This document shows positions 5,004-57,774 of a stretch of DNA of 64,000 bases, in pieces (within the stretch, counting starts at the first letter, position 1; the number at the start of each line of letters is the position of its first letter). Location: NCBI RefSeq assembly GCF_019285735.1, contig NZ_CP079107.1, positions 1,302,001 to 1,366,000 on the forward strand. The letters run 5' to 3'. The notes below the pieces were generated by a model. The model was not told where the DNA came from. It ran no database searches and saw only the letters and a list, made by a program, of their open reading frames with translations. This DNA comes from Paeniglutamicibacter sp. Y32M11 (lineage in GTDB: Bacteria; Actinomycetota; Actinomycetes; Actinomycetales; Micrococcaceae). A program made the position numbers and the translations under genes.

Positions 5004-6911
5004 CTACTGACTCTTGGTGAGGAAATCGGCCACGATTGGGCCGGCCGTCTGCGCGCCACCACTGCCGTCGCCAACGAATACCGCAACGGCCAGATCACCT
5101 TGGGAAGCGATGACCCAGGCATGTGCGTTGCGTTCCTCGTCGTACTCGGCCGTTCCGCTCTTGCCGATGATGGTGCCACCGGGGACCTTGGCGAGCTCCT
5201 TGAGCGTGCCATGATCTACGACCTCGGACATCATGCCCGATAGTGCTTTGGCCTCATCCTTGGTCAGTGGGTTCTTGGGCTTCGGCGCTTTAGCCGGCGC
5301 CGGATCCACCACCAGATGCGGGTAGACGGTCGCGCCGTTTTTCACCGACGCTGCCACCGTGGCCATACCTAGCGCGGAGGCTTCAACAACACCCTGGCCG
5401 ATGCCATTGGCTGCCAGTTCGGTGCCGGTGGAGGTATCTGGCACCGAGCCGAGGAATGCTGCTGCACCGGTGGAGGGGCTCAGGTTCAGACCCAGCGAGG
5501 CGGCAGCGTCCGAGAGGGCGGCGGCCTTCACCTTGGTGGCGCCGGTCAGGAACACGGTATTACACGATTGTGCCAGGGCCTCGGAGAGTGGGATGCTGCC
5601 CAGCGCGCTGGAGGGGTAACCGTCGTAGTTCTTGAACGCCTTGCCATCCACCGACAGGGTCGCCGGGCAGTCGACAGTCGTGGTGGGGGTGTCGCCCGAG
5701 CGCAACATGGCCAGTGCCGTGATGACCTTAAACGTTGATCCCGGGGCGTACTTGCCCAGTAGTGCCGTGTTCGCCGCGTTGGTCTCCGGTCCCGCCGCGG
5801 CGGCCAAGATGGCACCGTCCGAGGGTCGCACCGCCACCAGCGCGCTGTCGCTGGCCGAGTCAGCCAGCAGTGACTCGGCCAGGGTCTGCATGTCCAGATC
5901 CAGGGTGGTCTTCAGGCTTTTGCCATCAACGGCCTCGGCGGTGAGCAGCGAGGAGACTTCGTTTTTGTCCTTGTCGAAGATCGAGATGGAGTAGCCCTTG
6001 GTACCGGCCAAGGTGTCCTGGTACTCCTTTTGCAGGCCCGAGAGGCCCACCTGTTGTCCGGCGCTGATGCTTCCCTTGGACTCGGCGACGATTTCAGCGC
6101 TGGCCTCGCCCACGGTGCCCAGAATGGCCCGGGCGAAGTTGCGGCTCTTGGCCAGCGGCACGGTGCCCGGCTGGGCCAGCACCCCGTCGATCGCGTCGAG
6201 TTGAGCGTCGGTGACGGTTCGGTCCTTGTCATCACGCAGCACGATGGCCTGGACGAAAGCCTTGGGGCCGGCGGCGGCGACGGACTTGGCATAGGCCGGC
6301 GCATCAATCTCCACCAAGGCGGCCAGCTTTTTGGCCGAGGTCTCCCACTTGGACGGGTCCAGGGCGTTTTTATCGATGCCGATGCGCAGCACCGGCCGCT
6401 CGGTGACCAGTCCCTGGTTGTTGTTGCCGAGAATATCGCCGCGCGCAGCGGCGGTGTTGCGCTTGGCCACGTATTGACCCGCGGCTAGGCCAGGGACTGC
6501 CAGCTCGGGGGAGTAACGCAGCTCCCACGAATCGGACTCATCATTAAGTTCGAGGGTGCCTTGGGTTGTATAGCTCCAGTCGGTGTCGCTGGCATCAATG
6601 TCCCACACCGTTTTCAGCGTGGCGGTGGCCGTGTTGGGGTCCTTTGATCCCTCGTCCTCGGTCACCGATTCCAGGGTGACGGTGCGTGGGATCGACTCCA
6701 GGGGTGCCAGCGCCTCGCCGAGTTCGGTAGATACGGTGGTGGCATCGGCCCCGGCCAAGCTCAGGCCAGCGAAGTCCAGGGACTGCAGGGAGGTGGCCAG
6801 TTGATTTGCCGTGGCATCGGGCGTGGGGGCGGCATTTGTGCAGGCTGCCAGCGAGCCCAGCATCAGAAAGGCGGCCGTGGGCAGGGCAATTCTTCGAAGA
6901 ACGCGTGACAT
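5004..6911 (-). CDS. penicillin-binding transpeptidase lipoprotein with MecA-type N-terminal domain
   Basis: D,D-transpeptidase that cross-links peptidoglycan outside the membrane; 635 aa. It has a lipoprotein signal with lipobox LAAC (Cys24) in place of the usual membrane helix. Residues about 30-145 form an NTF2-like MecA_N domain, then comes a PBP dimerisation region, and the transpeptidase domain occupies about 335-635. The active-site motifs are present: Ser392-x-x-Lys395 in GSTFK, S-x-N in QSCNT (449-451) and KSGTAE near residue 590. This architecture resembles class B PBPs such as actinobacterial PbpA-like proteins and PBP2a. Membership does not imply beta-lactam resistance. It is transcribed alone, divergent from pheS. 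Confidence 0.92.
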   Translation of the reverse strand: MSRVLRRIALPTAAFLMLGSLAACTNAAPTPDATANQLATSLQSLDFAGLSLAGADATTVSTELGEALAPLESIPRTVTLESVTEDEGSKDPNTATATLKTVWDIDASDTDWSYTTQGTLELNDESDSWELRYSPELAVPGLAAGQYVAKRNTAAARGDILGNNNQGLVTERPVLRIGIDKNALDPSKWETSAKKLAALVEIDAPAYAKSVAAAGPKAFVQAIVLRDDKDRTVTDAQLDAIDGVLAQPGTVPLAKSRNFARAILGTVGEASAEIVAESKGSISAGQQVGLSGLQKEYQDTLAGTKGYSISIFDKDKNEVSSLLTAEAVDGKSLKTTLDLDMQTLAESLLADSASDSALVAVRPSDGAILAAAAGPETNAANTALLGKYAPGSTFKVITALAMLRSGDTPTTTVDCPATLSVDGKAFKNYDGYPSSALGSIPLSEALAQSCNTVFLTGATKVKAAALSDAAASLGLNLSPSTGAAAFLGSVPDTSTGTELAANGIGQGVVEASALGMATVAASVKNGATVYPHLVVDPAPAKAPKPKNPLTKDEAKALSGMMSEVVDHGTLKELAKVPGGTIIGKSGTAEYDEERNAHAWVIASQGDLAVAVFVGDGSGGAQTAGPIVADFLTKSQ

Positions 6912-7063
6912 AAGGCTAACTATTGCGTAAAACCCCGGTGGGTGTCCATAACGCCACAGCTAAGACGACCGGGGCGGTGATTGAAGCTGCGCCGGGGCCA
7001 GCACATAGAATGAGAAGTAGAAGCCAACAAGACAATCAACAGTGAAAAGGGCCGTAGAACCCC

Positions 7064-8152
<1,089 letters not shown>

Positions 8153-8155
8153 GAC

Positions 8156-10696
8156 ATGCGTATTCCACTTTCATGGCTGCGCGAATACGCGCAGGTTCCC
8201 GCCGAAGCTTCGGCCGAGGACGTTATGGCCGAACTGGTTAAGGTCGGTCTTGAGGAAGAGGACGTTCACCGTCCCAGCGATTCCATCTCCGGTCCCATCG
8301 TGGTGGGTCAGGTGCTCTCCCTGGTGAAGGAAGAGCAGACCAACGGCAAGACCATTAACTGGTGCCAGGTTCGTGTGGTGCCCGAGGGCGCAACACAAAA
8401 CCTCACCAACGAGGGTATCGATCCCTCGGGTGTGCAGGGCATCATCTGCGGTGCACACAACTTCGTGGAGGGTGACAAGGTTGTTGTCACGCTTCCGGGC
8501 GCCGTGCTGCCCGGGGACTTCCGGATTACCCCGCGTAAGACCTATGGTCATATTTCGGCCGGCATGATCGCCTCCGCACGCGAGCTGGGCCTCGGCGAAG
8601 ACCACGATGGCATCATCGTGCTCTCGAATCTGGGTCTTGACCCGGAGGTCGGCACCGACGCGATGGAACTGTTGGGTCTCTACGATCAGGCAGCAGAAAT
8701 CAACGTCACCCCGGACCGTTCCTACGCGTTCTCCATCCGTGGGGTGGCCCGCGAATACGCGCACGCCACCAACACCCCCTTCACCGATCCTGCCTCCTTG
8801 GTCACCGTGGATACCGCCACCGCACCGGGTCACCAGGTGACCTTGGCCGATGCCGCGGGGATCTACGGCAAGGCCGGCTGCGATCGCTTCATCACGCGCA
8901 AGGTCACCAACGTGAATGCGGCGCTGCCCACCCCACCGTGGATGGCTAGCCGACTGAATCTGGCTGGCATGCGTTCGATCTCCCTGATCGTGGATATTTC
9001 CAACTACGTCATGTTGGAACTGGGTCAGCCGCTGCACTTCTACGACGCGGATCAGCTCACCGGTGGTATCACCGTGCGCCGGGCCACCGAGGGTGAGACG
9101 CTGACGACCCTCGATGCCAAGGTGCGCAAGCTGCACGTCGAGGATCTGTTGATCACCGATGAATCCGGTGCCATTGGCATTGCCGGAGTCATGGGTGGAT
9201 CTGCCACCGAGGTTTCCGGAACCACCACCAACGTGCTCATCGAGGCAGCTCACTTCGAAGCGATCTCCATTGCGCGTTCGCGTCGTCGCCACAAGCTGCC
9301 CTCCGAGGCTTCCAAGCGTTACGAACGCGGAGTGGACTGGCAGGTGGCTGACAAGGCCGCCCAGCGTGCCGTGGACCTCTTGGTTCAGCTGGCCGGTGGC
9401 ACCGCCACCACCGAGATCACCGATGCGGGTACCGCTCCGGAACCAACGGTGATCAACCTGCCCGCAGATTTCGCCTCGGCACTGATCGGGATCGACTACA
9501 CCGCCGAACAGGTGACCTGGGCACTGAGCGAAATTGGTGCCGAGCTTGAGGCCACCGCGGACGGCTACAGCGTCACGGCACCGTCATGGCGCCCGGACCT
9601 CACCACCAAGCAGGACCTAGTGGAGGAAATTGCGCGTCTGGTGGGTTACCACCTGATTCCTTCCACCCTTCCCACGGCACCTCCGGGCCGCGGTTTCTCC
9701 CGGGTGCAGGGCCAGCGTCGTCGTGTGGTTGCTGCCCTAGCGGACTCGGGCCTGACCGAGGTCCTCTCCTACCCGTTCGTTACGGCGGTGCAGAACAACA
9801 CCTTCGGTGCGCCCGTGGCCGGCGAGGTCAAGGCCGTAAAGCTGAATAACCCGATGTCTTCGGAGTTCGGATTCATGCGGACCTCGATGCTGCCGGGCCT
9901 GCTGGGCATTGCCCGTCGCAACCACGGTCGCGGCTTCCGCGATCTGGCACTCTACGAGGCCGGACTGGTCTTCCTGCCCGGAGATACCCTGGGCACGGCA
10001 ACGATCCCGCCGGTGGGCATCAAGCCCTCTGAGGCAGAGCTCGAGGCACTGTACGGCGGTCTGCCGCACCAGCCGATGCACATTGCCGCTGTCCTCAGCG
10101 GCAACGATTCGCCGGTTGCCGCAGCGCACACCCCGCGCGTCTACGACTGGGCCGATGCCCTGGATACCGCACTGCTGGTCGCCGACGTGTTGGGCGTTGA
10201 GGTGGTTACCTCGCAGGGGGCCCACCAGGCCTTCCACCCGGGCCGTACCGCCGCACTTGCACTGCGCGACGGCACGCACCTTGGTTATGCCGGTGAGCTG
10301 CACCCGAAGCTGCTGGCGGAACTCGATCTGCCGGCCCGCACCGTGGCCATGGAAATCAACGTTGACGAGCTTTTTGAAGCCGCAGCGGATGTCATTGTGG
10401 CCAAGGAAATTTCGACCTTCCCGATCTCCACTCAGGACGTTGCCCTGGTTGTTGATCAGAGCGTGGTGGCTTCGGACGTACTCGAAACCTTGCGTGAGGG
10501 TGCAGGGGAGCTGTTGGAAGACATTGCTCTCTTCGACGTGTACACCGGTACCGGCATCGAGGACGGCAAAAAGTCATTGGCCTTCGGCCTGCGCTTCCGC
10601 GCCACCGACCGCACGCTGACCGCCGATGAGGCCTCCGAGGCGCGTGCCGCGGCGGTGGCACTTGCCGCCGAGCGATTCGCGGCCGTGCAGCGCTAA
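8156..10696 (+). CDS. pheT: phenylalanyl-tRNA synthetase beta subunit
   Basis: Beta subunit of PheRS, 846 aa, which binds tRNA and edits mischarged Tyr-tRNA-Phe. Domain order follows the family: N-terminal MRIPLSWLREY, OB-fold tRNA-binding domain (VGQVLSL...CGAHNFVEGDKVVV), B3/B4 editing domain (about 230-400, with the signature YERGVDWQVADKAAQRAVDLL), B5 domain, the inactive synthetase-like fold (RRRVVAALADSGLTEVLSYPFV) and the C-terminal FDX-ACB anticodon domain (STFPISTQDVALVVDQ). It starts 3 bases after pheS and ends at a strong terminator. Confidence 0.97.
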   Translation: MRIPLSWLREYAQVPAEASAEDVMAELVKVGLEEEDVHRPSDSISGPIVVGQVLSLVKEEQTNGKTINWCQVRVVPEGATQNLTNEGIDPSGVQGIICGAHNFVEGDKVVVTLPGAVLPGDFRITPRKTYGHISAGMIASARELGLGEDHDGIIVLSNLGLDPEVGTDAMELLGLYDQAAEINVTPDRSYAFSIRGVAREYAHATNTPFTDPASLVTVDTATAPGHQVTLADAAGIYGKAGCDRFITRKVTNVNAALPTPPWMASRLNLAGMRSISLIVDISNYVMLELGQPLHFYDADQLTGGITVRRATEGETLTTLDAKVRKLHVEDLLITDESGAIGIAGVMGGSATEVSGTTTNVLIEAAHFEAISIARSRRRHKLPSEASKRYERGVDWQVADKAAQRAVDLLVQLAGGTATTEITDAGTAPEPTVINLPADFASALIGIDYTAEQVTWALSEIGAELEATADGYSVTAPSWRPDLTTKQDLVEEIARLVGYHLIPSTLPTAPPGRGFSRVQGQRRRVVAALADSGLTEVLSYPFVTAVQNNTFGAPVAGEVKAVKLNNPMSSEFGFMRTSMLPGLLGIARRNHGRGFRDLALYEAGLVFLPGDTLGTATIPPVGIKPSEAELEALYGGLPHQPMHIAAVLSGNDSPVAAAHTPRVYDWADALDTALLVADVLGVEVVTSQGAHQAFHPGRTAALALRDGTHLGYAGELHPKLLAELDLPARTVAMEINVDELFEAAADVIVAKEISTFPISTQDVALVVDQSVVASDVLETLREGAGELLEDIALFDVYTGTGIEDGKKSLAFGLRFRATDRTLTADEASEARAAAVALAAERFAAVQR

Positions 10697-10719
10697 GCAG
10701 CACCGCGGGTAGTAGTACC

Positions 10720-10761
10720 AAAGGCCGGCAGCCTCCCCACACGGGAAAGCTGCCGGCCTTT
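10720..10761 (+). terminator. Rho-independent terminator of pheST
   Basis: Arms aaaggccggcag (10720-10731) and ctgccggccttt (10750-10761) with an 18-base loop, 23 bases after the pheT stop. Confidence 0.88.
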
Positions 10762-10769
10762 GTTCTGCC

Positions 10770-10922
10770 ATGGTCACCAGGCTCGGGGCACGGATTAGCG
10801 CCGATCTCTGGGGCGCCACGTCCGTCACGGAGGACACCACCGAGGTTTTAGACGATGCAATGGCGTGCTTCGCCAAACTAATCGAGCGGCTCACCGCCGA
10901 ATCTCTTGTTGTATCCGGTTGA
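10770..10922 (+). pseudogene. possible short ORF or gene remnant (50 codons)
   Basis: ATG at 10770, directly after the terminator tail, opens an uninterrupted 50-codon frame ending in TGA at 10920-10922, with codon use like real genes here. The ending ...LDDAMACFAKLIERLTAESLVVSG looks like the last helix of a larger soluble protein. No ribosome site is visible. I do not recognise the protein. A leftover C-terminus of a deleted gene is the most economical reading, but it could be a chance ORF. Confidence 0.3.
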
Positions 10923-10952
10923 CTCTTCACAAACGTCAACATAATGTTGACG
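10919..10952 (+). promoter_or_regulatory. promoter with 19-bp palindromic operator at a leaderless start
   Basis: TTGACT at 10919-10924 and CATAAT at 10940-10945 (15-base spacer) form a plausible promoter. A perfect palindrome, cgtcaacat-a-atgttgacg, spans 10934-10952, covers the -10 element and ends one base before the ATG at 10954. A protein bound here would block polymerase directly. The HTH protein encoded two genes downstream is the obvious candidate regulator (inference). Confidence 0.6.
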
Positions 10953-10953
10953 C

Positions 10954-11208
10954 ATGAGTGAATCCCAACGAAAGCTGAGAACCTACCAACGGATTACCGG
11001 AATTGTCCTTCTCGGTGGCCTTGGAATATTGCTGGTGACCCTTCTGATCGGTGTTGCGGTACCCGTCATGGTGCTTGCGCCGGCAAGTCTCATTTTTCTG
11101 ATCCTCGCCATCGTCTGGGTTATTTGCATCCTCATGGAACGCAGAAACGCGCAGCTTAACGCCACGTCAGGTCGATCTTGGCTGCCGGATTCCCGAGATG
11201 CCCACTAA
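10954..11208 (+). CDS. small two-helix membrane protein of unknown function
   Basis: An 84-aa protein with two adjacent hydrophobic segments (ITGIVLLGGLGILLVTLLIGV and VMVLAPASLIFLILAIVWVICIL), a positively charged N-terminus (SQRKLRTYQR) and a short polar tail. The mRNA probably begins at or next to the ATG because the -10 element ends 8 bases upstream, and no Shine-Dalgarno is present. The last 11 bases overlap the HTH gene, so the two are co-translated. It could be a membrane partner or sensor for that regulator. I recognise no family. Confidence 0.72.
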   Translation: MSESQRKLRTYQRITGIVLLGGLGILLVTLLIGVAVPVMVLAPASLIFLILAIVWVICILMERRNAQLNATSGRSWLPDSRDAH

Positions 11209-11749
11209 CGCGGAATCTGACTCGGCACTGAAGGCGGCCCTGGCACAGCTCAGCCTGTCCCAGTTACCCCTTTCCGACTCCGGGGAAGAGCTGAGCCCGG
11301 AGCAGCTGCTGCAACAGGTGAGGCAGCTTTATCTCATCCATTCGGAGACAGGAAAACTGTTGCACGAAGCAGTGCTTGCTGCCCGTGCCGCGGGGCTGTC
11401 GTGGGCCGTTATCGGTGACCGTTTGGGGGTGAGCAAACAAGCCGTCCAGCGACGCTTTGGTACCAGCGTAGAGCTGGCACGAGATGCTGCGACGGAGCGT
11501 ATTCTTGGCCCGGTAAACCGTAGCAACGAGATAGCGATTCTTAACGAGTCGGGCCGGTCCGGATGGAAGCTGCTTTCCTCCAAGCATGGTGAACACCTCG
11601 TGCTTCGGACCAATACCCTCTGGGAGGTCAAACGAACCCTCCTATCGGCACCGCTGGCGCTGGGCAAGGGCGGGCGCGAGCGCTGGCAGCTTGCCAGCGT
11701 CAGGTTCCCGGATGTCTTCTTCACACGTGAATGGCATGACGGCGAATGA
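11198..11749 (+). CDS. helix-turn-helix DNA-binding protein
   Basis: A 183-aa protein with one clear HTH near residues 66-89 (GLSWAVIGDRLGVSKQAVQRRFG), of the sigma-70 region 4-like type that in actinobacteria often accompanies small regulatory modules. The N-terminal 65 residues are helical (PEQLLQQVRQLYLIHSETGKLLHEAV). The C-terminal half is of unknown fold, with a conserved-looking GGRERWQLASVRFPDVFFTREWHDGE. It overlaps the preceding small membrane-protein gene and presumably autoregulates the pair through the palindrome at 10934-10952; this is inferred from position alone. Confidence 0.75.
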   Translation: MPTNAESDSALKAALAQLSLSQLPLSDSGEELSPEQLLQQVRQLYLIHSETGKLLHEAVLAARAAGLSWAVIGDRLGVSKQAVQRRFGTSVELARDAATERILGPVNRSNEIAILNESGRSGWKLLSSKHGEHLVLRTNTLWEVKRTLLSAPLALGKGGRERWQLASVRFPDVFFTREWHDGE

Positions 11750-11849: not shown

Positions 11850-12734
11850 CTAGAACTCCTCGCCGGCCGCCACAACTGCCGAAGCAGGTCCAACAATGTG
11901 CGGATCCGGGGTACCGACCAGTTCGTGATCCTTGCCCTCATAATCGAAGAGACTCAACACATGGCGCATGGCCTCAATCCGAGCGCGCTTCTTATCGTTG
12001 GATTTCACCACGGTCCAGGGTGCCCATTCGGTGTCGGTGCTCTGGAAGGTCTCTTCCTTGGCCTCGGTGTAGGCTTCCCATTTATCCAGCGACGCAAGGT
12101 CCGTGGGGGAAAGCTTCCACTGCCGTACCGGATCGATCTGACGGATGGTAAAGCGCGTCAGCTGCTCTTGGCGCGAGACCGAGAACCAGAACTTCACCAG
12201 GGTGATTCCCTCATCAACCAATTGCTGCTCGAAGGTCGGAGCCTGGTTCATGAACCTATCGAACTGTTCCTTGGTGCAAAAGCGCATGACACGTTCAACA
12301 CCTGAGCGGTTGTACCAAGAACGGTCGAAGAGGACCATTTCGCCGGCCGCTGGAAGGTGCGCAATATAGCGCTGGAAGAACCACTGCGTGGATTCGCGCT
12401 CGCTGGGCTTCTCGAGGGCAACCACCCGGGCGCCACGAGGATTGAGGTGCTCGGTGAAACGTTTGATCGTTCCGCCCTTGCCCGCGGCGTCGCGGCCCTC
12501 AAAGAGCACGACCAAACGGCGTCCGGTGGCCTTGATCCAGACCTGTAATTTCAGCAGCTCGATCTGGAGCAGCCGCTTGTCCATCTCGTACTGGGTGCGG
12601 TCCATCCGTGAAGAATATGGATAGTCTTCACGCCAGGTGTCCACTACATCGCCGGCTGACGTTAACAACACCGGGTCGTCGTCGTCATTGTCGCGGACGG
12701 AGTAGCCATGTGCGGCCAAATCAAGCATTTGCAT
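11850..12734 (-). CDS. ppk2: polyphosphate kinase 2 (PPK2 family, single domain)
   Basis: Transfers phosphate between polyphosphate and nucleotides, usually making GTP or ATP from the diphosphate. The 294 aa hold one PPK2 domain with Walker A GRDAAGKGG (80-88), the lid region EKPSERESTQWFFQRYIAHLP and Walker B FDRSWYNRSGVERV (136-148). The C-terminal part runs SRQEQLTRFTIRQIDPVRQWKLSPTD. The ATG at 12734 is preceded on its strand by TAGCCT with exactly six bases between, indicating a leaderless message and supporting this start over the Met two codons in. PPK2 class (ADP or AMP use) is not decided by what I can see. Confidence 0.93.
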   Translation of the reverse strand: MQMLDLAAHGYSVRDNDDDDPVLLTSAGDVVDTWREDYPYSSRMDRTQYEMDKRLLQIELLKLQVWIKATGRRLVVLFEGRDAAGKGGTIKRFTEHLNPRGARVVALEKPSERESTQWFFQRYIAHLPAAGEMVLFDRSWYNRSGVERVMRFCTKEQFDRFMNQAPTFEQQLVDEGITLVKFWFSVSRQEQLTRFTIRQIDPVRQWKLSPTDLASLDKWEAYTEAKEETFQSTDTEWAPWTVVKSNDKKRARIEAMRHVLSLFDYEGKDHELVGTPDPHIVGPASAVVAAGEEF

Positions 12735-12811: not shown

Positions 12812-14215
12812 CTAGGCGTTTTTCTCCGCGGCAAGCTGCGGCAAGGCAGTTTCAAAGAGCCATGGCCGCAGGAAATCGGCTGCCGACACGGACAGCGGCA
12901 AATGAGCATCAACGTGCTCCAGAAACTGCTCACAGGTGACGGTCGAATGGCGCCGCGCACCGACCCAAGACCGGAGCATCGCAAAGAACGCGCGGTCCCC
13001 GGCGGCCAATCGCAGCGCATGAAGTGCTAGTGCGCCACGCTTGTACACCCGGTCATCAAACATGTCGGCTGCACCGGGATCCCCGATGGTGATATCACTT
13101 TCCAGGGAATCCAGACGGCTCCACGCATCTCGCGCACGCTCATCGGCACTGAGGTTGCCGGCGGCTTCGGACCAGATCCACTCGGCGTAGCAGGCAAAGC
13201 CCTCATGCAACCAGATATCCCGCCAGGTTCCAGCGGTCAGGGAGTTGCCAAACCATTGATGCGAGAGCTCGTGGGCGATGAGTCGCTGCTGCTCCCAGCC
13301 CGGAGCCAGGTGGTTATTCCCCAGTATGGAGAGGCCGTGGGCCTCCAGCGGGATCTCGAGATCGTCCTGGGTGACAACAACGGTGTAGTCGGCGAAGGGA
13401 TAGGGGCCAAAGGCCTCGATAAAGGTTTCCATCATTCGTGGCTGGTCGGACAGGGCAGAACCTGCCCGCCGCAGCTGCGAGCCATTTGCCGCCACGCGTT
13501 GGATGACGGGGGTTGGGGCATCTGCATGCGCACCTCCGGTAACACTGGCCGCCGTGGCGGAGCCAGCTAACGCACGCAACTCATAGCGGCCGATCTGCAG
13601 CGTTGCCAGGTAGGTGGCCATCGGCTCAAGGACCTCATAGGTCCAGGCCTCACCACGTGAACGACGTTGGCGGTCTATCAACTGGCCGTTGGAGACCGGG
13701 CGGTATCCGGCATCGGTGTTCACGGTGATGCGGTAGGTGGCCTTTTGGCTGGGGTGATCATTACAGGGGAACCAGGTGGCGGCACCATTGGGTTGGCCCG
13801 CAACGAGCACCCCATCTGTGAGTTCTTCCCAGCCGACCTCGCCCCAGATGCCTTGACGCACATTTGGCACGCCCCCGTAGCGGATCTCCACACTAAATTC
13901 CTCGCCCTTGGCCACGTCCGAGGGCAGGTGGAGCACCAGCTTTCCCGATTTCTGGGTGTACTTGGCGATCTTGGTGCTGTTGACCTGGCAGCGTGAGGCA
14001 CGCAAGCCGGAAAAGTCCAGGCTAATACGATCGAGTCTGGTGGTGGCCACCGCCGTGATCGTCGCCTTGCCGTCCAAGCGATTACCGCCGAGTTTGCAAT
14101 CCAGATCCAGGTCATAGTGCATCACCCGGTAGTCGGCGCTTCCGGAGCGTGGCACATAGGGATCCGGGATGAAGCTGGGGACGGTGGTCGTATCAACTGG
14201 CGTGGTCTTGCTCAT
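12812..14215 (-). CDS. M1-family zinc metallopeptidase linked to the Pls-type synthetase
   Basis: A 467-aa peptidase of the aminopeptidase N family. The zinc site is intact: His315-Glu-x-x-His319 in AHELSHQWFGNS and Glu338 in WLHEGFACYAEW. The usual GAMEN exopeptidase motif is replaced by EIPLEAHG, as in a divergent M1 subfamily; the helical C-terminal domain of APN is absent. There is no signal peptide, so it is cytoplasmic. A longer frame begins at 14257, but the ATG at 14213-14215 overlaps the synthetase stop codon (atga), showing translational coupling. In epsilon-poly-lysine producers a zinc aminopeptidase degrades the polymer, so processing or self-protection is a reasonable inferred role. 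Confidence 0.9.
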   Translation of the reverse strand: MSKTTPVDTTTVPSFIPDPYVPRSGSADYRVMHYDLDLDCKLGGNRLDGKATITAVATTRLDRISLDFSGLRASRCQVNSTKIAKYTQKSGKLVLHLPSDVAKGEEFSVEIRYGGVPNVRQGIWGEVGWEELTDGVLVAGQPNGAATWFPCNDHPSQKATYRITVNTDAGYRPVSNGQLIDRQRRSRGEAWTYEVLEPMATYLATLQIGRYELRALAGSATAASVTGGAHADAPTPVIQRVAANGSQLRRAGSALSDQPRMMETFIEAFGPYPFADYTVVVTQDDLEIPLEAHGLSILGNNHLAPGWEQQRLIAHELSHQWFGNSLTAGTWRDIWLHEGFACYAEWIWSEAAGNLSADERARDAWSRLDSLESDITIGDPGAADMFDDRVYKRGALALHALRLAAGDRAFFAMLRSWVGARRHSTVTCEQFLEHVDAHLPLSVSAADFLRPWLFETALPQLAAEKNA

Positions 14216-17200
14216 GCGTTCGGCTGGCTCCAAGGCTGTACGGGGTTGCCCATCCAATAACTCGACGGGGGAACGTTTTCTCCGCGCATGACCAGCGAAC
14301 CCGGTCCCACGGTGGAGCCTTCCGACAGTGATGCAGCCGGCAGGATGACTCCGTGGGGACCCATCGTGGATCCTGCGGAGAGTTCTACCGTATCAATAGC
14401 CATGACCCGGTCGTGGAAGAGGTGGGTCTGGATGACCGTTCCGCGATTCACCGTGGAGGAGTCGCCGAGGGTGACCAAGTCGGCTTCGGGAAGCCAATAG
14501 CTTTCGCACCAGACGCCGTGGCCAATCTTGGCACCCAGGGCGCGCAACCACCAGACCAGGGCGGGGGAACCCGCCGCCGAATGGGCGAACCACGGAGCGC
14601 ACACCATTTCGATGAAGGTGTCCACCACCTCGTTGCGCCAGATGAAGGAGCTCCATAGGGTATGTTCACCCGGACGGATGGGACCGACCAGCACCCATTT
14701 GGCAACCACAGCCGAGGTGGCGGCAACGGCGCCGGCGAGCAGCATGATCGCTCCACTGAGCAGGGCGGCAGTCAGATAACCATAGTGGATGGCCAGCATA
14801 TCCAGCAGTACCAGGACCAGGGTGGCTACCGCGACGCTGGTGATGACCGGCAGAATACGGCACAATTCCCACAGCGCGCGGGCGATCTTGAGGCGAAGCG
14901 GCGGAGCATAGGTCAGCGAGGAATCCGCATCAACGGTGGTGCGGCGCAACCGAACCGGAGGACTGCCCAACCAGGAGGTCCCGGCCTTGGCCTTGGCAGG
15001 TGTTGCCGAGAGAACCGCGACCAGCCCATTACGTGGCACCCGTCGCCCGGCACCGGCGATACCTGAGTTACCCAAGAAGGCGCGCTTGCCAATCTTGGCG
15101 CGTCCCACCTTCATCCAGCCGCCGCCGAGCTCATAGGTAGCGACCATGGTGTCATCGGCCAGGAAAGCACCCGAGGCGATGGTGGTCATCTTGGGAATCA
15201 GCAGGACGGTGGAGGCCTCAACGTTGCGTCCGACCTTCGCGCCCAGCAGGCGCAACCAGACGGGAGTAAACAGCGATGCGTACAGCGGGAAGAGCAGATC
15301 CCGGGCCATGTCCAGGAGTCGTTCGGTGGCCCAGACCTGCCAGCCGATGCGGCTATCGACGCGATGCCATCCCTCACGCAGGCCAAGGCCCAAGATGCGA
15401 GTGGCGCCCAGAATCAGGAGCATGTTCAGCACAAACCATGTCACGGCGGCAACGGGAACCACGTAAAGCAACGTGAGCCACGAATCGCTGAGCGAGGTGC
15501 CCCCGCGCAGCAGCCACGCGGCAATCACCAGCGCACCAAGGATCGACAGCAGTGGCAGGGCTCCCAAGGCCATCGAAGCCACGGAGAAAAACGAGCTGGC
15601 CACTCGGCGGGCAGTGGTGATGGTCTGGGGCCAGGCCGGTTTGGCCTTGCCCAGGCGCGTGGCCGGGGAACCGGAGTAGGCGGAGAACGCCCGGGTAGGA
15701 CCGGCGGCAACAGAGCCGGCGGCCAGAGTGACACCCTCGGCGATGCTGGCACCGGGCATCAGCGTGCTGCGTGCCCCAATGCTGGCATCTGCACCAATGG
15801 TGATGGCGCCGACGTGCACACGATCTCCGTCGATCCAGTAGCCGGTCAAATCAACCTCGGGTTCGATGTTCGCTCCGCTGCCCACGGTGAGTAGACCGGT
15901 GACCGGAGGTACCGAGTGCAATTGCACATCGGGGCCAACCGTGGCGCCCAAGGCTCGGGCGTAGAACTGAATCCAGTGGGCGCTGCCCAGAGACACGGGG
16001 TCGGCCAAATCGGAAATTTGTTGGGCCAGCCAGAGACGCAGGTGTACCTTGCCCGAACGCGGGTAATTTCCGGGCTTCACTCCGCGCAGCAACATACGTG
16101 CCGAGATCACGGAGATGGCCATGCGTCCCGGGGAGGAGACAAAGACCAACCAGAGCACCAGCACCGTCCACCAGGACAACCGTGGTGCCTGCGTGAAGAC
16201 GCCCAGCGCGTCAAGCACATTGTTGCCGAGTGCCAAATACACCAGCCAGCGCATGCCCACCAGAATGAAGGTGGGGATGCCCATGAGCGTCTGGAAGATC
16301 TGGGCGCGTCGGGTGGTTCGGGCCACGATCCGGGGCTCCGGTTCCACCCCGGTGCTGGTGCCCAGGGCTTCAAGCAAGGAACCGATGCGTGGGTGGGAGT
16401 AAATTTCCCCCACCGTGATGGTGCGGTAGCGAACGCGTAGTGCGGAGACCAGTTGAGCTGCGGAGAGGGATCCGCCGCCCGAGGCAAAGAAGTCGGCATC
16501 AAGGGAGGAGACCTCGGTACCCAGTACCCGTCGCCATTGCTCGATGACCCAGCTCGCGTCCTCGCCCAGCTCGGGCAGTACCGAGGAGGAGGTATCGGCT
16601 GCCGTGGCCAACGGCCACGGCAGGGCGTTCCGGTCAACCTTGCCACTGGTTTTTGTCGGTAGCGTATCCACCACCGTGAGTAACGGGATCAGCGCGGCCG
16701 GGAGCATGTCGGCCAGTCGGGTGCGGGCAGCGATCGTGTCATAGGAGGCATCGGCGGCCAGGTAGCCGACCAAGATCTGGTTTCCGGCGGCGGTGGTCTT
16801 CACCGCCGCTGCGGCTCCGGATACCTCGGGCAACGATTGCAGCGCGGCATCAACCTCGCCGAGCTCAATGCGTCGGCCACCGAGCTTGACCTGTTCATCC
16901 AGACGACCCAGGAAGATCAGGCCCTCGGGGTCGGCCTGCACCAGGTCACCGGAGCGGTAGGCACGGTCCCAGCCGAGGGTGGGGAACGGAGCGTATTTTT
17001 CCGCATCCTTTGCCGGATCCAGGTAGCGACCCAGCCCGACTCCGCCAATGATCAATTCTCCGCTTTCACCAGGACCCACCGGGATACCCGAGGCATCAAC
17101 GACGGCGAGATCCCAACCGGTCAGCGGCAGACCGATACGCACCGGGTCAACACCGTTCATCTGGGCACCGCAGGCCACCACCGTCGCCTCGGTGGGTCCA

Positions 17201-18231
17201 TAGGTGTTCCAGAGTTCACGTCCGGTGACGGCCAGCCGGGCGGCCAGCTCGGGTGGGCAGGCTTCACCACCAAAAATCAACAGGCGCACATTTTCTAGGG
17301 CCTCGGCGGGCCAAAGCGCCGCAAGGGTGGGAACGGTGGAGACGACCGTGACACCGCGAGTTACCAGCCACGGCCCCAAATCCATACCCGAACGGACCAG
17401 CGCGCGTGGTGCTGGCACCAAGCAGGAACCGTGGCGCCAGGCCAACCACATTTCTTCACAGGACGCATCAAAGGCGACCGAGAGGCCGGCCAACACGCGG
17501 TCTTCGGGTCCCATCGGCTCACTCTGGAGGAAGAGTGCCGCCTCGGCGTCAACAAATGCCGCGGCCGAGCGCTGGGTGATGGACACGCCCTTGGGGGTAC
17601 CGGTGGAGCCGGAGGTGAAGATGATCCAGGCATCGTCACCGAGTTCCGCCTCCCGAGCCGGTGAGGTATTGGCCTCGCTGCGCAGTACGGCGATTTCTCC
17701 CTTGTCACCCAAGACGGCAGCAACGTTGGCCTCGGAAAAGACCAACTGTGCTCGTTCCTCCGGGTCATCGGCATCCACCGGGACGTAGGCGGCGCCGATC
17801 ATCATCGTGGCAAGAATGCCAATGTAGAGCTCGCGGGTGCCAGAGGGGATACGGATGCCGACTCTGTCGCCGGCCCCAAGACCGGCGGTTCGCATGCGTT
17901 CGGCCTGCTCATCGATACTCACCATGAGTTCGGCATAAGTGAGCGCGCGCTCGCCGTCATCTAGTGCGGAGGCTTCGGGGTGAGCGGCCGCACTGGCTTC
18001 AAGGATGTTCAGCAGGGTGCGGGGAGCCGGGGCCAAGTCACTGCCGGGGTACTGGGGCAGATAAATTGGGGTAGGAGTACCTTGGTCGGAAATGCTGCGA
18101 GTCGATTCCACTGTGGCTTTCTTGACGTGGCGCTTGGCCTTACCAAGGGTAGGGGTCGACCCAAACGCTGGGACCCAACCAGGAGCCGGAAGCGCGCCGC
18201 CGAAGCGTTCGCGACCGCCCGGTCGGCACAT
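14212..18231 (-). CDS. Pls-type membrane NRPS (A-T-six TM segments with three C-like domains), lysine-like specificity
   Basis: Single-module non-ribosomal peptide synthetase of 1339 aa with the architecture of epsilon-poly-L-lysine synthetase (family length about 1300). The adenylation domain (about 70-535) has A3 IIFTSGSTGTPKG, A5 NTYGPTEATV, A7 YRSGDLV and A10 Lys531. Aligned by eye to GrsA, the pocket is D255 A256 E259 S298 I319 G321 T343 V351 V352 K531; bacitracin's lysine module is DAESIGSVCK. The carrier domain has GGGS with Ser588. Beyond it come six hydrophobic helices and three hexapeptide-repeat C-like blocks that in Pls catalyse iterative amide formation. TAGGTT ends 8 bases before the ATG at 18231; a TTG at 18240 is also in frame. 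Homology to Pls begins near residue 68 (APRTLLNILEA), so the exact start is unsure. Confidence 0.9.
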   Translation of the reverse strand: MCRPGGRERFGGALPAPGWVPAFGSTPTLGKAKRHVKKATVESTRSISDQGTPTPIYLPQYPGSDLAPAPRTLLNILEASAAAHPEASALDDGERALTYAELMVSIDEQAERMRTAGLGAGDRVGIRIPSGTRELYIGILATMMIGAAYVPVDADDPEERAQLVFSEANVAAVLGDKGEIAVLRSEANTSPAREAELGDDAWIIFTSGSTGTPKGVSITQRSAAAFVDAEAALFLQSEPMGPEDRVLAGLSVAFDASCEEMWLAWRHGSCLVPAPRALVRSGMDLGPWLVTRGVTVVSTVPTLAALWPAEALENVRLLIFGGEACPPELAARLAVTGRELWNTYGPTEATVVACGAQMNGVDPVRIGLPLTGWDLAVVDASGIPVGPGESGELIIGGVGLGRYLDPAKDAEKYAPFPTLGWDRAYRSGDLVQADPEGLIFLGRLDEQVKLGGRRIELGEVDAALQSLPEVSGAAAAVKTTAAGNQILVGYLAADASYDTIAARTRLADMLPAALIPLLTVVDTLPTKTSGKVDRNALPWPLATAADTSSSVLPELGEDASWVIEQWRRVLGTEVSSLDADFFASGGGSLSAAQLVSALRVRYRTITVGEIYSHPRIGSLLEALGTSTGVEPEPRIVARTTRRAQIFQTLMGIPTFILVGMRWLVYLALGNNVLDALGVFTQAPRLSWWTVLVLWLVFVSSPGRMAISVISARMLLRGVKPGNYPRSGKVHLRLWLAQQISDLADPVSLGSAHWIQFYARALGATVGPDVQLHSVPPVTGLLTVGSGANIEPEVDLTGYWIDGDRVHVGAITIGADASIGARSTLMPGASIAEGVTLAAGSVAAGPTRAFSAYSGSPATRLGKAKPAWPQTITTARRVASSFFSVASMALGALPLLSILGALVIAAWLLRGGTSLSDSWLTLLYVVPVAAVTWFVLNMLLILGATRILGLGLREGWHRVDSRIGWQVWATERLLDMARDLLFPLYASLFTPVWLRLLGAKVGRNVEASTVLLIPKMTTIASGAFLADDTMVATYELGGGWMKVGRAKIGKRAFLGNSGIAGAGRRVPRNGLVAVLSATPAKAKAGTSWLGSPPVRLRRTTVDADSSLTYAPPLRLKIARALWELCRILPVITSVAVATLVLVLLDMLAIHYGYLTAALLSGAIMLLAGAVAATSAVVAKWVLVGPIRPGEHTLWSSFIWRNEVVDTFIEMVCAPWFAHSAAGSPALVWWLRALGAKIGHGVWCESYWLPEADLVTLGDSSTVNRGTVIQTHLFHDRVMAIDTVELSAGSTMGPHGVILPAASLSEGSTVGPGSLVMRGENVPPSSYWMGNPVQPWSQPNA

Positions 18232-18310
18232 ACGGGACAAACCTAATCAGCAAAGGTTAACGGAAGGTGTCTAGCGGATAGACACGATAAGTTCACCGTA
18301 ATGTAGAGCC
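18232..18310. promoter_or_regulatory. divergent promoter region with 19-bp palindromic operator (pls / PPTase)
   Basis: GTGTCTAGCGGATAGACAC at 18267-18285 has perfect 7-bp arms around a 5-base centre, a form typical of TetR or GntR operators. It lies between the minus-strand -10 element TAGGTT (18240-18245) of the synthetase and the plus-strand -10 element TAATGT (18299-18304) six bases before an ATG at 18311. One regulator bound here could control both directions. No regulator gene is adjacent. Confidence 0.55.
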
Positions 18311-18379
18311 ATGGCAGATTTGCCCCCGGGGCAGTCAAGAGCCCAGCCAATCGGCCGATCATCACGGAGGGAGGCACCG

Positions 18380-19147
18380 ATGCGCAGTGAAAAGCACTCC
18401 GCAGTGGGTCTTATCACCCCGGGCACCGAGCCCTGCTGGTCCGCGACGCGGCTGAGTGATGCGGCCCTGTACCCAGAGGTTTTGTTGAACAGCATCGAGC
18501 AGCAACGCGCTCGGAGCTACCACGAAGGAACACCGCGGCAGAACTTTAGCAACGGACGTATTTTGGTTAAGGTCCTTGCCGCAAAGATGCTCAACCGCGA
18601 CCGTGAACCCAGTACGAAACTGAGCCCGGCCGATCTAACCATCGAGCAGCTCTGTCCCGGATGTGCCTCGACACGGCATGGGAATCCGCGATTGCGGCTA
18701 CCCGATCGTGGGGGGAGCCTGACCCTCTCGTATGCCCGTACCGGGGGCTGGCTGGTGGTCGCGGTTTCGCGTGCGGAACAGCTGCTTGGTATCGATGTGG
18801 CAGATGCCGCAGATCCGGCCTTTGCGCCGGGATCCGGCGAACTATTGGACGACTATGCCTTTTCGCCCCAGGAACGCGCCCACCTACAGAGAATGAACCT
18901 ACCCCAACGAATCCACCAACGAGCTAGCTGGTGGTCGCTGAAGGAAGCCGTGGCCAAGGCCAGCGGTGTTGGTCTTGCGGGGGAGGACGGTATCCCCATC
19001 GTGGAGGGGGACGGTAAGCACGTACTGCTGTCCTCTCCCGGAACCCGCATCCTTGCCCTGAATTCGCACACCCCCGACTCCCTGGGCCACCTTTTGCCCG
19101 ATACCTTAGTCGGCACCCTGCTCTGGGCACCGCGAAGCACCAAATGA
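18380..19147 (+). CDS. 4'-phosphopantetheinyl transferase (Sfp superfamily)
   Basis: Activates carrier proteins by moving the phosphopantetheine arm of CoA to the carrier serine. Sfp-type motifs are visible: LLGIDVADAA (the G-I-D metal site) and WWSLKEAVAKASGVGL (the W-x-x-KEA motif). From the ATG at 18380 it is 255 aa, normal for the family, and GGAGGGAGG at 18366-18374 lies 5 bases upstream. An in-frame ATG at 18311 preceded by TAATGT plus six bases could also serve as a leaderless start, adding 23 residues. It is divergent from the Pls-type synthetase, whose Ser588 is the likely target. Confidence 0.9.
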   Translation: MRSEKHSAVGLITPGTEPCWSATRLSDAALYPEVLLNSIEQQRARSYHEGTPRQNFSNGRILVKVLAAKMLNRDREPSTKLSPADLTIEQLCPGCASTRHGNPRLRLPDRGGSLTLSYARTGGWLVVAVSRAEQLLGIDVADAADPAFAPGSGELLDDYAFSPQERAHLQRMNLPQRIHQRASWWSLKEAVAKASGVGLAGEDGIPIVEGDGKHVLLSSPGTRILALNSHTPDSLGHLLPDTLVGTLLWAPRSTK

Positions 19148-41170: not shown

Positions 41171-42487
41171 GTGTCTGAAATTGAGCAGAATCCCGCCTTG
41201 TCGGGACAGAGTAATGATCCGTCGTTTGCCAACATTTGGCAGGAACTGAAGTGGCGTGGCCTGGTCCACGTTTCCACTGATGAAACCGAGCTCGAAAAGG
41301 TGCTCTCCGAGGAGATAATTACCTATTACTGCGGGTTTGACCCCACGGCAGCCTCGTTGCACCTGGGCAACTTGGTCCAGTTGCTGAATATGCGTCGACT
41401 GCAATTGGCCGGTCACAAGCCTCTCGGACTGGTGGGTGGTTCCACCGGGTTGATTGGCGATCCGCGCCAGACCGCCGAACGTGTCCTGAACACCAAGGAG
41501 ACGGTGGCCGAATGGGTCGGTAAACTCCAAGCGCAGGTTGCTCGCTTCTTATCCTTCGAGGGTGAGAATGCCGCGCGCATGGTCAACAACCTTGACTGGA
41601 CCGCCAACCTCAGCGCCATCGACTTCCTGCGTGAAGTGGGCAAGTACTTCCGCGTGGGCACCATGATCAAGAAGGAAACCGTTGCTGCTCGCCTGAACTC
41701 CGATGAGGGCATCAGCTACACCGAATTCAGCTACCAGGTGCTGCAGGGCTACGACTACCTGCAGCTACACAAGCTCTACGGTTGCACCCTGCAGACCGGT
41801 GGCTCGGATCAGTGGGGAAATCTCACCAGCGGTACCGACTTGATTCGCAAGGCCGAGGGCAAGAGCGCGTACGCCTACGGAACGCCATTGATCACCAACT
41901 CCGATGGCACCAAATTCGGCAAGTCCGAGGGTAACGCCATTTGGTTGGACGCGGAGATGTGCAGCCCGTACGCCTTCTACCAGTTCTGGCTGAACACCGC
42001 CGATGCCGATGTGGCTTCGCGGTTGAAGGTCTTCACCTTCCTGACCCGCGCCGAGATCGAGGCTCTGGAGCAGGAAGTGGCAGATCGTCCCTTTGCCCGC
42101 AAGGGCCAGAAGGAACTTGCCTACCTGGTTACCTCGTTGGTCCACGGAGTTGATGCAACCGAGAAGGTTATCGCAGCATCTGCAGCACTCTTTGGCCAGG
42201 GCGAACTGAGCGACATGGATGAAGCGACCCTTCGCGCCGCAACCCAAGAGCTGACGAGCACCACTATTAACGGTGATGACCTAGACATCGTTTCGGTGTT
42301 GATGGCTTCGGGACTCTCTGAATCGAAGTCGGCGGCTCGCCGTACGGTGAATGAGGGTGGAGCATACGTTAATAACGTGAAGTACTCGGACCTTGATGCG
42401 GTTATTAACAAGGATGATTTGCTTCATGGTCGCTACCTCTTGGTACGACGCGGAAAGAAGAACCTGGCTGTCGTTGAAGTTGCCTAG
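41171..42487 (+). CDS. tyrS: tyrosyl-tRNA synthetase
   Basis: Class I synthetase charging tRNA-Tyr, 438 aa. The HIGH-like motif is in PTAASLHLGNLVQLL, the tyrosine pocket includes YDYLQLHKLYGCTLQTGGSDQWGN, and the KMSKS-like loop is KFGKSEG. The C-terminal S4 RNA-binding domain (DIVSVLMASGLSESKSAARRTVNEGGAYVNN) is present. TAATTT (41159-41164) six bases before the GTG indicates a leaderless message, and no T-box leader exists. A strong terminator follows. Confidence 0.97.
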   Translation: MSEIEQNPALSGQSNDPSFANIWQELKWRGLVHVSTDETELEKVLSEEIITYYCGFDPTAASLHLGNLVQLLNMRRLQLAGHKPLGLVGGSTGLIGDPRQTAERVLNTKETVAEWVGKLQAQVARFLSFEGENAARMVNNLDWTANLSAIDFLREVGKYFRVGTMIKKETVAARLNSDEGISYTEFSYQVLQGYDYLQLHKLYGCTLQTGGSDQWGNLTSGTDLIRKAEGKSAYAYGTPLITNSDGTKFGKSEGNAIWLDAEMCSPYAFYQFWLNTADADVASRLKVFTFLTRAEIEALEQEVADRPFARKGQKELAYLVTSLVHGVDATEKVIAASAALFGQGELSDMDEATLRAATQELTSTTINGDDLDIVSVLMASGLSESKSAARRTVNEGGAYVNNVKYSDLDAVINKDDLLHGRYLLVRRGKKNLAVVEVA

Positions 42488-42522
42488 TTAGGGGAACAAC
42501 GCCCGGTTTGCCGAAAGGCAGG

Positions 42523-42580
42523 AAAAGTCGGGGTGGGGGAGTGTTGCTGATCACTGCAGCTTCCCTGCCCCGACTTTTTT
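42523..42580 (+). terminator. terminator of tyrS
   Basis: aaaagtcgggg (42523-42533) pairs with ccccgactttt (42568-42578), followed by more T. Confidence 0.85.
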
Positions 42581-43123
42581 GTTTCCGAAAGGACCTAGGA
42601 TCCCTATATATACGGGGTTTTCGCGGTTTTTGGTGGGGGAGAGGGCTGATTTCCTCTTCGGGTGTTTTGTGTGTATAGTTTTCTAAGTCGCCGCGAGGGA
42701 CACCACGGGAATACTGCGGAGAGAATCGCCGGGCGACCGAATTTCTACTCAATCCCCTTCCAAAATTTTGTTCGGTGCTTTGTTGTGCCGAGGAGATGGT
42801 GGGAGCTGAGTGTTGGGGCAGTGTTCATCAGTGATGGTGGATTTGTTCTTCGACACGCGGTGGGGTAAGGTAGACAAGTTGCTCCAGAGCGAAGCGCCGG
42901 CAGGAAACGTTAGTCCGGGTCGTGGATGTTGGAAGTGTCTGTTGTTTGAGAACTCAATAGTGTGCCAAGTTTGTTGATACCAATTTATTTATTTTATTGG
43001 TGAATGGCTTCAAGGTTTGCACCCCCCGGTGTGGATGCTTGAGGCAATTTGCCAGGATGTTTTTACTTGGTGCAACCCGGTCGACTTTTTCCAGTTGGCG
43101 TGTTGGTTGTGTCTGTATATTTT
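42581..43123 (+). promoter_or_regulatory. promoter and leader region of rRNA operon A
   Basis: No gene is seen in these 543 bases. Two promoters are plausible. P1: TTCCTC (42651-42656), 17 bases, TATAGT (42674-42679). P2: TTGTTC (42843-42848), 17 bases, TAAGGT (42866-42871). The block gttgtttgagaactcaatag (42941-42960), shared exactly with operon B, resembles the antitermination and processing leader of actinobacterial pre-16S RNA. P1 and P2 elements recur ahead of operon B while the DNA between them differs. Confidence 0.65.
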
Positions 43124-48370
<5,247 letters not shown>

Positions 48371-48547
48371 CAAACACCACGCATCAACTTTGGTTGGTGT
48401 TGGCAAGAAACGCTGCGTCCACTATACGGTCCCGAAACAACAAACCCATTTGTTTTTCGCGGATACAACAACATACAACCACTATTGTGGTCGTAACCCA
48501 TAGATTCACCATGCTCTACCCTTTGTGGTTAGAGCAGTGGTACTAGA

Positions 48548-48666
48548 GTTACGGCGGTCATAGCGTGGGGGAAACGCCCGGTCCCATACCGAACCCGGAA
48601 GCTAAGACCCACTGCGCCGATGGTACTGCACTCGGGAGGGTGTGGGAGAGTAGGTCACCGCCGGAC
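48548..48666 (+). rRNA. rrf: 5S ribosomal RNA (operon A)
   Basis: About 119 bases: helix I is formed by ttacggcggt and accgccgg, and the conserved ccataccgaacccggaagct is at 48583. It lies 177 bases after the 23S end. Confidence 0.95.
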
Positions 48667-48678
48667 AATATTTTGTTC

Positions 48679-48717
48679 CGAAACCCTCAAACACTGACGT
48701 GTTTGGGGGTTTCGATG
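48679..48717 (+). terminator. terminator of rRNA operon A
   Basis: cgaaaccctcaaacac and gtgtttgggggtttcg form a 16-bp stem with one G-T pair and a 4-base loop, starting 13 bases after 5S. Confidence 0.85.
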
Positions 48718-48759
48718 TTTAACACCCACCAGACCACTCCTTGATGGGGTCGGGTTCTG

Positions 48760-50084: not shown

Positions 50085-50212
50085 GGGTTCTGTCGGCTCA
50101 CGCCGACAGAACCCGACCCCTTTTTGCGTTAACCAGCCGAACTGAACACGAAGTGTAAGTTGAAGTTTTGATTACATACATAAACGCTGAAACTGTAAGT
50201 ATAGTGAAAGGC

Positions 50213-51430: not shown

Positions 51431-51702
51431 CACCTTCCAACTAGCTGATTTTTCGGGTTCGAGAGCTGAAGCTCGACTGCTGCCGGAAGAGTTCAACCAG
51501 GCCATGGTGAACCAGCAGATGCATCTAGACGTTTTTGAACTTGGTTCGTGTAGTTGAGTGGAAGAATCTGTTTGAGCGCAGCGGGTATGTGGCAGTGTCG
51601 CGGGGGTCACGGTGATGTTTTTTGGTGTTTTAGTCGAGCTGGGGCGTGTGGGGACTGGTTTTGGGCTGGTTTGGCGGGGTTTTTGGTGGGGAGAGGGCTG
51701 AT
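51431..51702. other. intergenic DNA after the Fic gene
   Basis: These 272 bases hold no supported gene or strong hairpin. The sequence becomes T/G-rich towards the rRNA promoter region. Confidence 0.6.
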
Positions 51703-52174
51703 TTCCTCTTCGGGTGTTTTGTGTGTATAGTTCTTTGAGTTGCCGGGATGAGGACAGCGGAAGTTTTCGCTGAGGATCTCCTGGTTGACCATCTTCCTTT
51801 CCTTAGATATCTGATCATTATGGTCGGCGTTTTTGAATGCCTTCGATTTTTGTCTGGTTCTGGGTGCTGGAGAGCGAGTATCACCTTGATGGTGGATTTG
51901 TTCTTCGACACGCGGTGGGGTAAGGTAGACAAGTTGCTCCAGAACGAAGCGGCCGGAACATTGTTTTCTGGTTGTGGTGTTGGAAGTGTCTGTTGTTTGA
52001 GAACTCAATAGTGTGCCAAGTTTGTTGATACCAATTTATTTATTTTATTGGTGAATGGCTTCAAGGTTTGCACCCCCCGGTGTGGATGCTTGAGGCAATT
52101 TGCCAGGATGTTTTTACTTGGTGCAACCCGGTCGACTTTTTCCAGTTGGCGTGTTGGTTGTGTCTGTATATTTT
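51703..52174 (+). promoter_or_regulatory. promoter and leader region of rRNA operon B
   Basis: Same elements as ahead of operon A: P1 TTCCTC (51703-51708), 17 bases, TATAGT (51726-51731); P2 TTGTTC (51898-51903), 17 bases, TAAGGT (51921-51926). The shared leader gttgtttgagaactcaatag lies at 51992-52011. The stretch between P1 and P2 and the part just after P2 differ from operon A, which points to conserved function of the matching blocks. Confidence 0.65.
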
Positions 52175-57427
<5,253 letters not shown>

Positions 57428-57604
57428 CAAACACCACGCATCAACTTTGGTTGGTGTTGGCAAGAAACGCTGCGTCCACTATACGGTCCCGAAACAACAA
57501 ACCCATTTGTTTTTCGCGGATACAACAACATACAACCACTATTGTGGTCGTAACCCATAGATTCACCATGCTCTACCCTTTGTGGTTAGAGCAGTGGTAC
57601 TAGA

Positions 57605-57723
57605 GTTACGGCGGTCATAGCGTGGGGGAAACGCCCGGTCCCATACCGAACCCGGAAGCTAAGACCCACTGCGCCGATGGTACTGCACTCGGGAGGGTGT
57701 GGGAGAGTAGGTCACCGCCGGAC
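57605..57723 (+). rRNA. rrf: 5S ribosomal RNA (operon B)
   Basis: Identical to the operon A copy in the bases compared; helix I ttacggcggt / accgccgg and the central ccataccgaacccggaagct are intact. Confidence 0.95.
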
Positions 57724-57735
57724 AATATTTTGTTC

Positions 57736-57774
57736 CGAAACCCTCAAACACTGACGTGTTTGGGGGTTTCGATG
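57736..57774 (+). terminator. terminator of rRNA operon B
   Basis: Same 16-bp stem as after operon A (cgaaaccctcaaacac / gtgtttgggggtttcg). Confidence 0.85.

What the first reader, a model, noticed from the sequence alone, without database searches (positions are those of the whole stretch)
12812..19147. Candidate epsilon-poly-lysine-like homopolymer pathway: Pls-type NRPS, M1 peptidase and PPTase
The 1339-aa synthetase has one adenylation domain, one carrier domain, six membrane segments and three C-like hexapeptide blocks, the layout of the iterative poly-lysine synthetase Pls. The ten pocket residues read by ungapped alignment to GrsA are D-A-E-S-I-G-T-V-V-K, differing from the bacitracin lysine code D-A-E-S-I-G-S-V-C-K at two places. 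The peptidase start overlaps the synthetase stop and the PPTase is divergent, so production, activation and polymer trimming or immunity genes are together. Product, chain length and purpose in this organism are unknown.
Basis: partly seen in the sequence, partly recalled or inferred. Interest (0 to 1): 0.78.

Follow-up and report, generated by a model that had tools for sequence, protein, structure and literature searches.

The report
Ordinary epsilon-poly-lysine synthetase operon
A soil-type bacterium carries the well-known gene set for making, and probably trimming, the antimicrobial polymer epsilon-poly-lysine; related actinobacteria carry it too, so the finding is correct but not new.

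Summary
The 1342-aa protein (14212-18240, minus) is a Pls/PosA-family synthetase (TIGR02353, 669.5 bits, cut-off 423.1). Its best solved match is 7WEW, an epsilon-poly-L-lysine synthase adenylation domain. The M1 peptidase starts inside the synthetase stop (ATGA), as at a Streptomyces pls locus, and lies downstream on the same strand within 600 bases in 108 of 111 lysine-code pls genes compared. The genome has one Pls-family gene over the cut-off, two carrier domains and two PPTases. Of 148 genomes, 57 of 63 with a Pls-family gene have two or more PPTases, against 23 of 85 without (not corrected for kinship); this supports the PPTase as Pls activator. A Pls-peptidase operon is published for Corynebacterium, with Pls homologues listed in Arthrobacter and Glutamicibacter (PMC8117764). 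No product was tested; biological use is inferred. The mildly new point is the linked PPTase, whose position differs between lineages.

The parts
14212..18240 (-). pls: Pls/PosA-family NRPS (A-T-six TM/C1-C3), predicted epsilon-poly-L-lysine synthetase; start codon uncertain (TTG 18240 or ATG 18231)
   Evidence: TIGR02353 669.5 bits, cut-off 423.1; PF00501, PF00550; 7WEW best PDB hit; code DAESIGTVVK
12812..14215 (-). M1-family metallopeptidase, PldII-like by position and family, predicted epsilon-poly-lysine hydrolase; start overlaps the pls stop (ATGA)
   Evidence: PF01433 86.3 bits, PF17900 71.1 bits; overlap; same layout in a Streptomyces plasmid, 41.6% identity over 449 aa
18380..19147 (+). 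Sfp-type 4'-phosphopantetheinyl transferase, predicted activator of the Pls carrier domain (ORF listed from 18311; 18380 likelier by ribosome site)
   Evidence: PF01648 37.8 bits; WSLKEA motif; ribosome site; co-occurrence with Pls-family genes in relatives

Best explanation
This is an epsilon-poly-L-lysine operon. The A domain adenylates L-lysine and loads it on the single carrier domain, which the neighbouring PPTase has armed with phosphopantetheine. The membrane-embedded C1-C3 domain joins lysines iteratively through their epsilon-amines without a thioesterase, giving a cationic chain (25-35 residues in known cases). The coupled M1 peptidase hydrolyses the polymer for self-protection or length control. 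Shown here: gene identities, the lysine code, the overlapping genes and the conservation of the pls-peptidase pair. Inferred from characterised relatives: substrate, linkage, chain length, peptidase role. Inferred only from co-occurrence: the PPTase-Pls pairing. Ecological use is unknown; competition with other microbes is the default guess.
For: TIGR02353 well above cut-off. 7WEW E=8.7e-197, all ten pocket residues identical. The same code in 110 of 111 lysine-type pls genes, window excluded, 48-97% identical over the aligned part; these 111 were chosen for this code or its one-letter variant, so this shows spread and is not a test. M1 peptidase downstream on the same strand within 600 bases in 108 of the 111 (misses: L060, L077 and the second copy in L085). 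A Streptomyces locus with a 4-base pls/M1 overlap. Published: the C. variabile homologue made epsilon-PL of 26-35 residues in S. coelicolor, and pls homologues were found in Arthrobacter and Glutamicibacter (PMC8117764, results and discussion read). PldII is translationally coupled to pls in S. albulus and described as self-protective (PMC9223678, passages). Own genome: one Pls-family gene over the cut-off, two carrier-domain matches, two PPTase matches. Two or more PPTases in 57 of 63 genomes with a Pls-family gene versus 23 of 85 without (typed).
Against: No product evidence. C. variabile itself made no detectable epsilon-PL and C. glutamicum expressing its Pls made none, so the operon may be silent. 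A second Streptomyces plasmid record with a related synthetase shows no peptidase annotated beside it, though that gene table is incomplete. The window peptidase has no hydrophobic N-terminal stretch, and neither do 112 homologues by the same crude scan, although PldII in S. albulus is described as outside the membrane and the Streptomyces homologue has a start that looks like a signal peptide by eye. Six of 63 genomes with a Pls-family gene have a single PPTase match. My PPTase profile found one within 4.5 kb of only 40 of 111 pls genes: a lower bound, since L076 and L099 hold one that it missed, but it found none at the Nocardia, Rhodococcus and Mycolicibacterium loci. Sequences of S. albulus PldII and of full-length Pls were not fetched.
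Confidence: 0.93

Rival explanations
1. The synthetase makes a different cationic homopolymer (ornithine, diaminobutyrate, diaminopropionate or beta-lysine).
For: The same family makes several such polymers (PMC10522769, sections read).
Against: PosA (ornithine) has M at the second code position and the PDAP synthetase F, where lysine enzymes have A; this one has A and the full code of 7WEW. Paralogues with F exist in relatives (L078, L081, L082) and lack the peptidase.
Confidence: 0.04
2. The operon is decayed or permanently silent in this organism.
For: C. variabile Pls protein was not detected and no epsilon-PL was found in its cultures. The family is patchy: 63 of 148 genomes over the cut-off.
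Against: All three frames are open with intact catalytic motifs, and the synthetase is 97% identical in a near relative that also has the peptidase and the PPTase (L086).
Confidence: 0.1
3. The PPTase is a general enzyme that only happens to lie here.
For: The profile found none near pls at the Nocardia, Rhodococcus and Mycolicibacterium loci; 6 of 63 genomes with a Pls-family gene have one PPTase match only.
Against: It is one of two PPTase matches in a genome with two carrier-domain matches. In the same genus, 3 of 4 genomes without a Pls-family gene over the cut-off have a single PPTase match, while all 11 with one, window genome included, have at least two.
Confidence: 0.2

Closest known systems
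Epsilon-poly-L-lysine synthetase Pls (Streptomyces albulus; A-domain structure 7WEW, its source organism recalled)
   Same: Domain order, ten-residue lysine code, coupled peptidase gene
   Different: Host lineage; no PPTase is annotated in the Streptomyces pls region read, whose gene table is incomplete
Corynebacterium variabile Pls-peptidase operon (PMC8117764)
   Same: Pls and peptidase operon in a coryneform actinobacterium
   Different: Different genus; its sequence was not fetched here
PosA, delta-poly-L-ornithine synthetase (Acinetobacter baumannii, PMC10522769)
   Same: Same family and architecture
   Different: Code DMEHNGTVSK, ornithine, reported as a single-gene operon
PldII, epsilon-PL-degrading enzyme of S. 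albulus (PMC9223678)
   Same: Peptidase gene translationally coupled to pls
   Different: No hydrophobic N-terminus in the window protein; compared only with a Streptomyces sp. homologue, not with PldII itself

Membership tests
Pls/PosA cationic homopolymer synthetases | A and T domains followed by the TIGR02353 domain, no C or TE domain | tested here: met
   TIGR02353 covered 2-695 of 695; only AMP-binding, PP-binding and hexapeptide models matched in Pfam
Pls/PosA cationic homopolymer synthetases | Six membrane segments in three pairs | tested here: met
   crude hydropathy scan, intervals merged by eye
Epsilon-poly-L-lysine synthetase | Lysine pocket code as in 7WEW | tested here: met
   10 of 10 residues identical
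Epsilon-poly-L-lysine synthetase | pls operon with a peptidase gene | tested here: met
   ATGA overlap; pair conserved in 108 of 111 genes
Epsilon-poly-L-lysine synthetase | Product is epsilon-linked polylysine | not testable with these tools
   needs mass spectrometry
PldII epsilon-PL peptidase | Metallopeptidase catalytic motif | tested here: met
   M1 domain, HELSH and LHEGF; that PldII itself is M1 was not tested on its sequence
PldII epsilon-PL peptidase | Location outside the cell membrane | tested here: inconclusive
   no hydrophobic N-terminal stretch in the window protein or in 112 homologues by a crude scan
PldII epsilon-PL peptidase | Hydrolyses epsilon-PL | not testable with these tools
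   enzyme assay needed
Sfp-type PPTase | ACPS-superfamily domain with WxxKEA (motif recalled) | tested here: met

The most novel reading that the evidence does not exclude
The PPTase is a dedicated third member of a self-contained pls-peptidase-PPTase cassette in Micrococcales with few other carrier proteins. It lies divergent upstream in this genus and mostly convergent downstream of the peptidase elsewhere. Lack of a compatible PPTase could be one reason why C. variabile Pls gave no polymer in C. glutamicum; the authors favour regulation, and C. glutamicum does have a PF01648 match (control), so this is speculation. The peptidase reads IPLEAHG where the two other M1 peptidases of this genome have GAMEN, possibly an adaptation to a polymer whose every residue carries a free alpha-amine.
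Probability: 0.5. Interest if true: 0.3.

Novelty: new member of a known kind. Interest (0 to 1): 0.15.

Why it matters
It adds one more genome with a full epsilon-poly-lysine gene set and ties a PPTase to it by co-occurrence, a practical hint for heterologous production. It does not open a new question.

Tried and rejected
Considered and rejected: ornithine, diaminobutyrate or diaminopropionate specificity (wrong second code residue). A chance neighbourhood of the peptidase: rejected, the pair is conserved in 108 of 111 genes. PPK2 and the sugar ABC genes as pathway members: left out, because nothing ties them to pls; their conservation was not tested. No structure prediction or fold search was run; the 7WEW match made it unnecessary.

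Rows dropped: four loci that repeat others, judged by equal contig length (L086, L087, L153, L102), were left out before the count of 111, and three genes with code DFECLSVVTK were not counted as lysine type. L079, L080 and L084 did not pass the 1e-100 cut-off and are not in its table. The match list was capped; its per-genome counts were not.

Literature: (poly-L-lysine, Pls, phosphopantetheinyl transferase) gave two papers, seen only in the listing and not read, so I cannot say whether a pls-linked PPTase is in print. One search (Paeniglutamicibacter, poly-L-lysine, polylysine, NAPAA) found 1,327 papers, 15 listed; no listed title or abstract start names this locus.

Full report
What is there. 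The synthetase (14212-18240, minus) reads 1342 aa from a TTG or 1339 aa from the ATG three codons later. The peptidase ATG lies at 14215-14213 and overlaps the synthetase TGA as ATGA, so the peptidase is 467 aa. The PPTase ORF is 18311-19147, but ATG 18380 behind GGAGGGAGG is the likelier start.

What the synthetase is. It scores 669.5 bits against TIGR02353, 'Pls/PosA family non-ribosomal peptide synthetase' (cut-off 423.1), with one AMP-binding and one PP-binding domain and hydrophobic intervals that I merged into six segments in three pairs. The best solved match is 7WEW, labelled epsilon-poly-L-lysine synthase, E=8.7e-197. The pocket residues read DAESIGTVVK (P0001 positions 258, 259, 262, 301, 322, 324, 346, 354, 355, 534), and the printed alignment to 7WEW shows the same ten. 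The positions were placed from recall of GrsA; eight of ten were then checked against PosA, whose published D217, M218, E221, H260, N280, T304, V312 and S313 fall on the mapped columns of the alignment with a constant offset of 2.

The peptidase. Pfam gives M1 with its N-terminal domain. HELSH and LHEGF are intact, while the GAMEN of the two other M1 peptidases in this genome is replaced by IPLEAHG. In 115 aligned rows (window, a Streptomyces homologue and the pls-linked relatives) the twelve commonest forms of this stretch, 96 rows, all keep the glutamate. A Streptomyces plasmid record annotates a Pls/PosA synthetase (locus 5965-9927) followed by an M1 metallopeptidase (9924-11327), the same four-base overlap; its peptidase is 41.6% identical to this one over 449 aa and its synthetase 52% over 1293 aa, with the lysine-code motifs present. 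A second Streptomyces plasmid record has no peptidase annotated beside its synthetase (that gene table is incomplete). In S. albulus, PldII is translationally coupled to pls and regarded as self-protective (PMC9223678, passages).

Organism and spread. In 148 genomes, window genome included, 63 have a TIGR02353 match over the cut-off. In 111 distinct lysine-type genes, window excluded, the code is DAESIGTVVK in 110 and DAESIGTVIK in one, and the M1 gene lies downstream on the same strand within 600 bases in 108 (largest gap 535). These genes were chosen for similarity to Pls and for the code itself, so they show conservation of the neighbourhood, not the family's full diversity.

The PPTase. 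The own genome has one Pls-family gene over the cut-off, two carrier-domain matches, one of them in Pls, and two PPTase matches, one of them this gene. Across the 148 genomes, two or more PPTase matches occur in 57 of 63 with a Pls-family gene and 23 of 85 without (Fisher p about 2e-15, not corrected for kinship; within the family, 44 of 50 versus 13 of 40). By my profile a PPTase lies within 4.5 kb of 40 of 111 pls genes. Of all 42 placements found, 33 were convergent downstream, 7 divergent upstream (one of them 7.2 kb away) and 2 downstream on the same strand; the seven upstream cases are all in the window's genus. This is a lower bound: L076 and L099 hold a PPTase that the profile missed, and in the capped list I picked out 14 genomes with a PF01648 match 1.5 to 5.1 kb from the TIGR02353 match. 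The profile found none at the Nocardia, Rhodococcus and Mycolicibacterium loci.

Known status. PMC8117764 (results and discussion read) reported Pls homologues in Corynebacterium, Brevibacterium, Arthrobacter, Microbacterium, Glutamicibacter and others, the peptidase operon in C. variabile, and epsilon-PL of 26-35 residues on expression in S. coelicolor. Genome papers report an epsilon-poly-lysine cluster in Leifsonia, Agrococcus and Microbacterium (PMC10628120, PMC12067966, passages) and a NAPAA (non-alpha poly-amino acid) cluster without similarity to a known cluster in Pseudarthrobacter (PMC12025171, passages). This is therefore a new member of a known kind. Whether the linked PPTase is in print I cannot say: the one search for it gave two papers that I did not read.

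Limits. No product, expression or enzyme data exist here. The peptidase shows no hydrophobic N-terminus, so where it meets the polymer is open. Ecological function is not addressed by any result here.

Noticed in passing
L079 2947-6345 (-), L080 2926-6057 (-), L084 5801-9199 (+): In relatives (G002 of the same genus, G074 of the same family) a Pls-type polymerisation domain is preceded by tandem carrier domains (four PP-binding stretches in L079 and L084, three repeats by eye in L080) and no adenylation domain; beside it in L079, partly overlapping, lies an open frame with an adenylation domain and one carrier domain. This looks like a homopolymer synthetase loaded in trans and deserves its own study.
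   Followed up: partly
L078, L081, L082: Second Pls-family copies with code DFECLSVVTK and no adjacent M1 peptidase, possibly poly-diaminopropionate type, since the PDAP synthetase is reported to have F at the second position.
   Followed up: partly
L085: Two Pls genes lie divergently about 1.3 kb apart, one with code DAESIGTVIK, with a PPTase 1.9 kb beyond the second copy.
   Followed up: no
window 42000-58000: GC falls to 0.52-0.57 with GC skew up to 0.24, against 0.57-0.64 in the rest of the window, possibly an island or prophage.
   Followed up: no
window 11850-12734 (-): Polyphosphate kinase 2 (PPK2) gene next to the peptidase gene; any relation to the cationic polymer was not tested.
   Followed up: no
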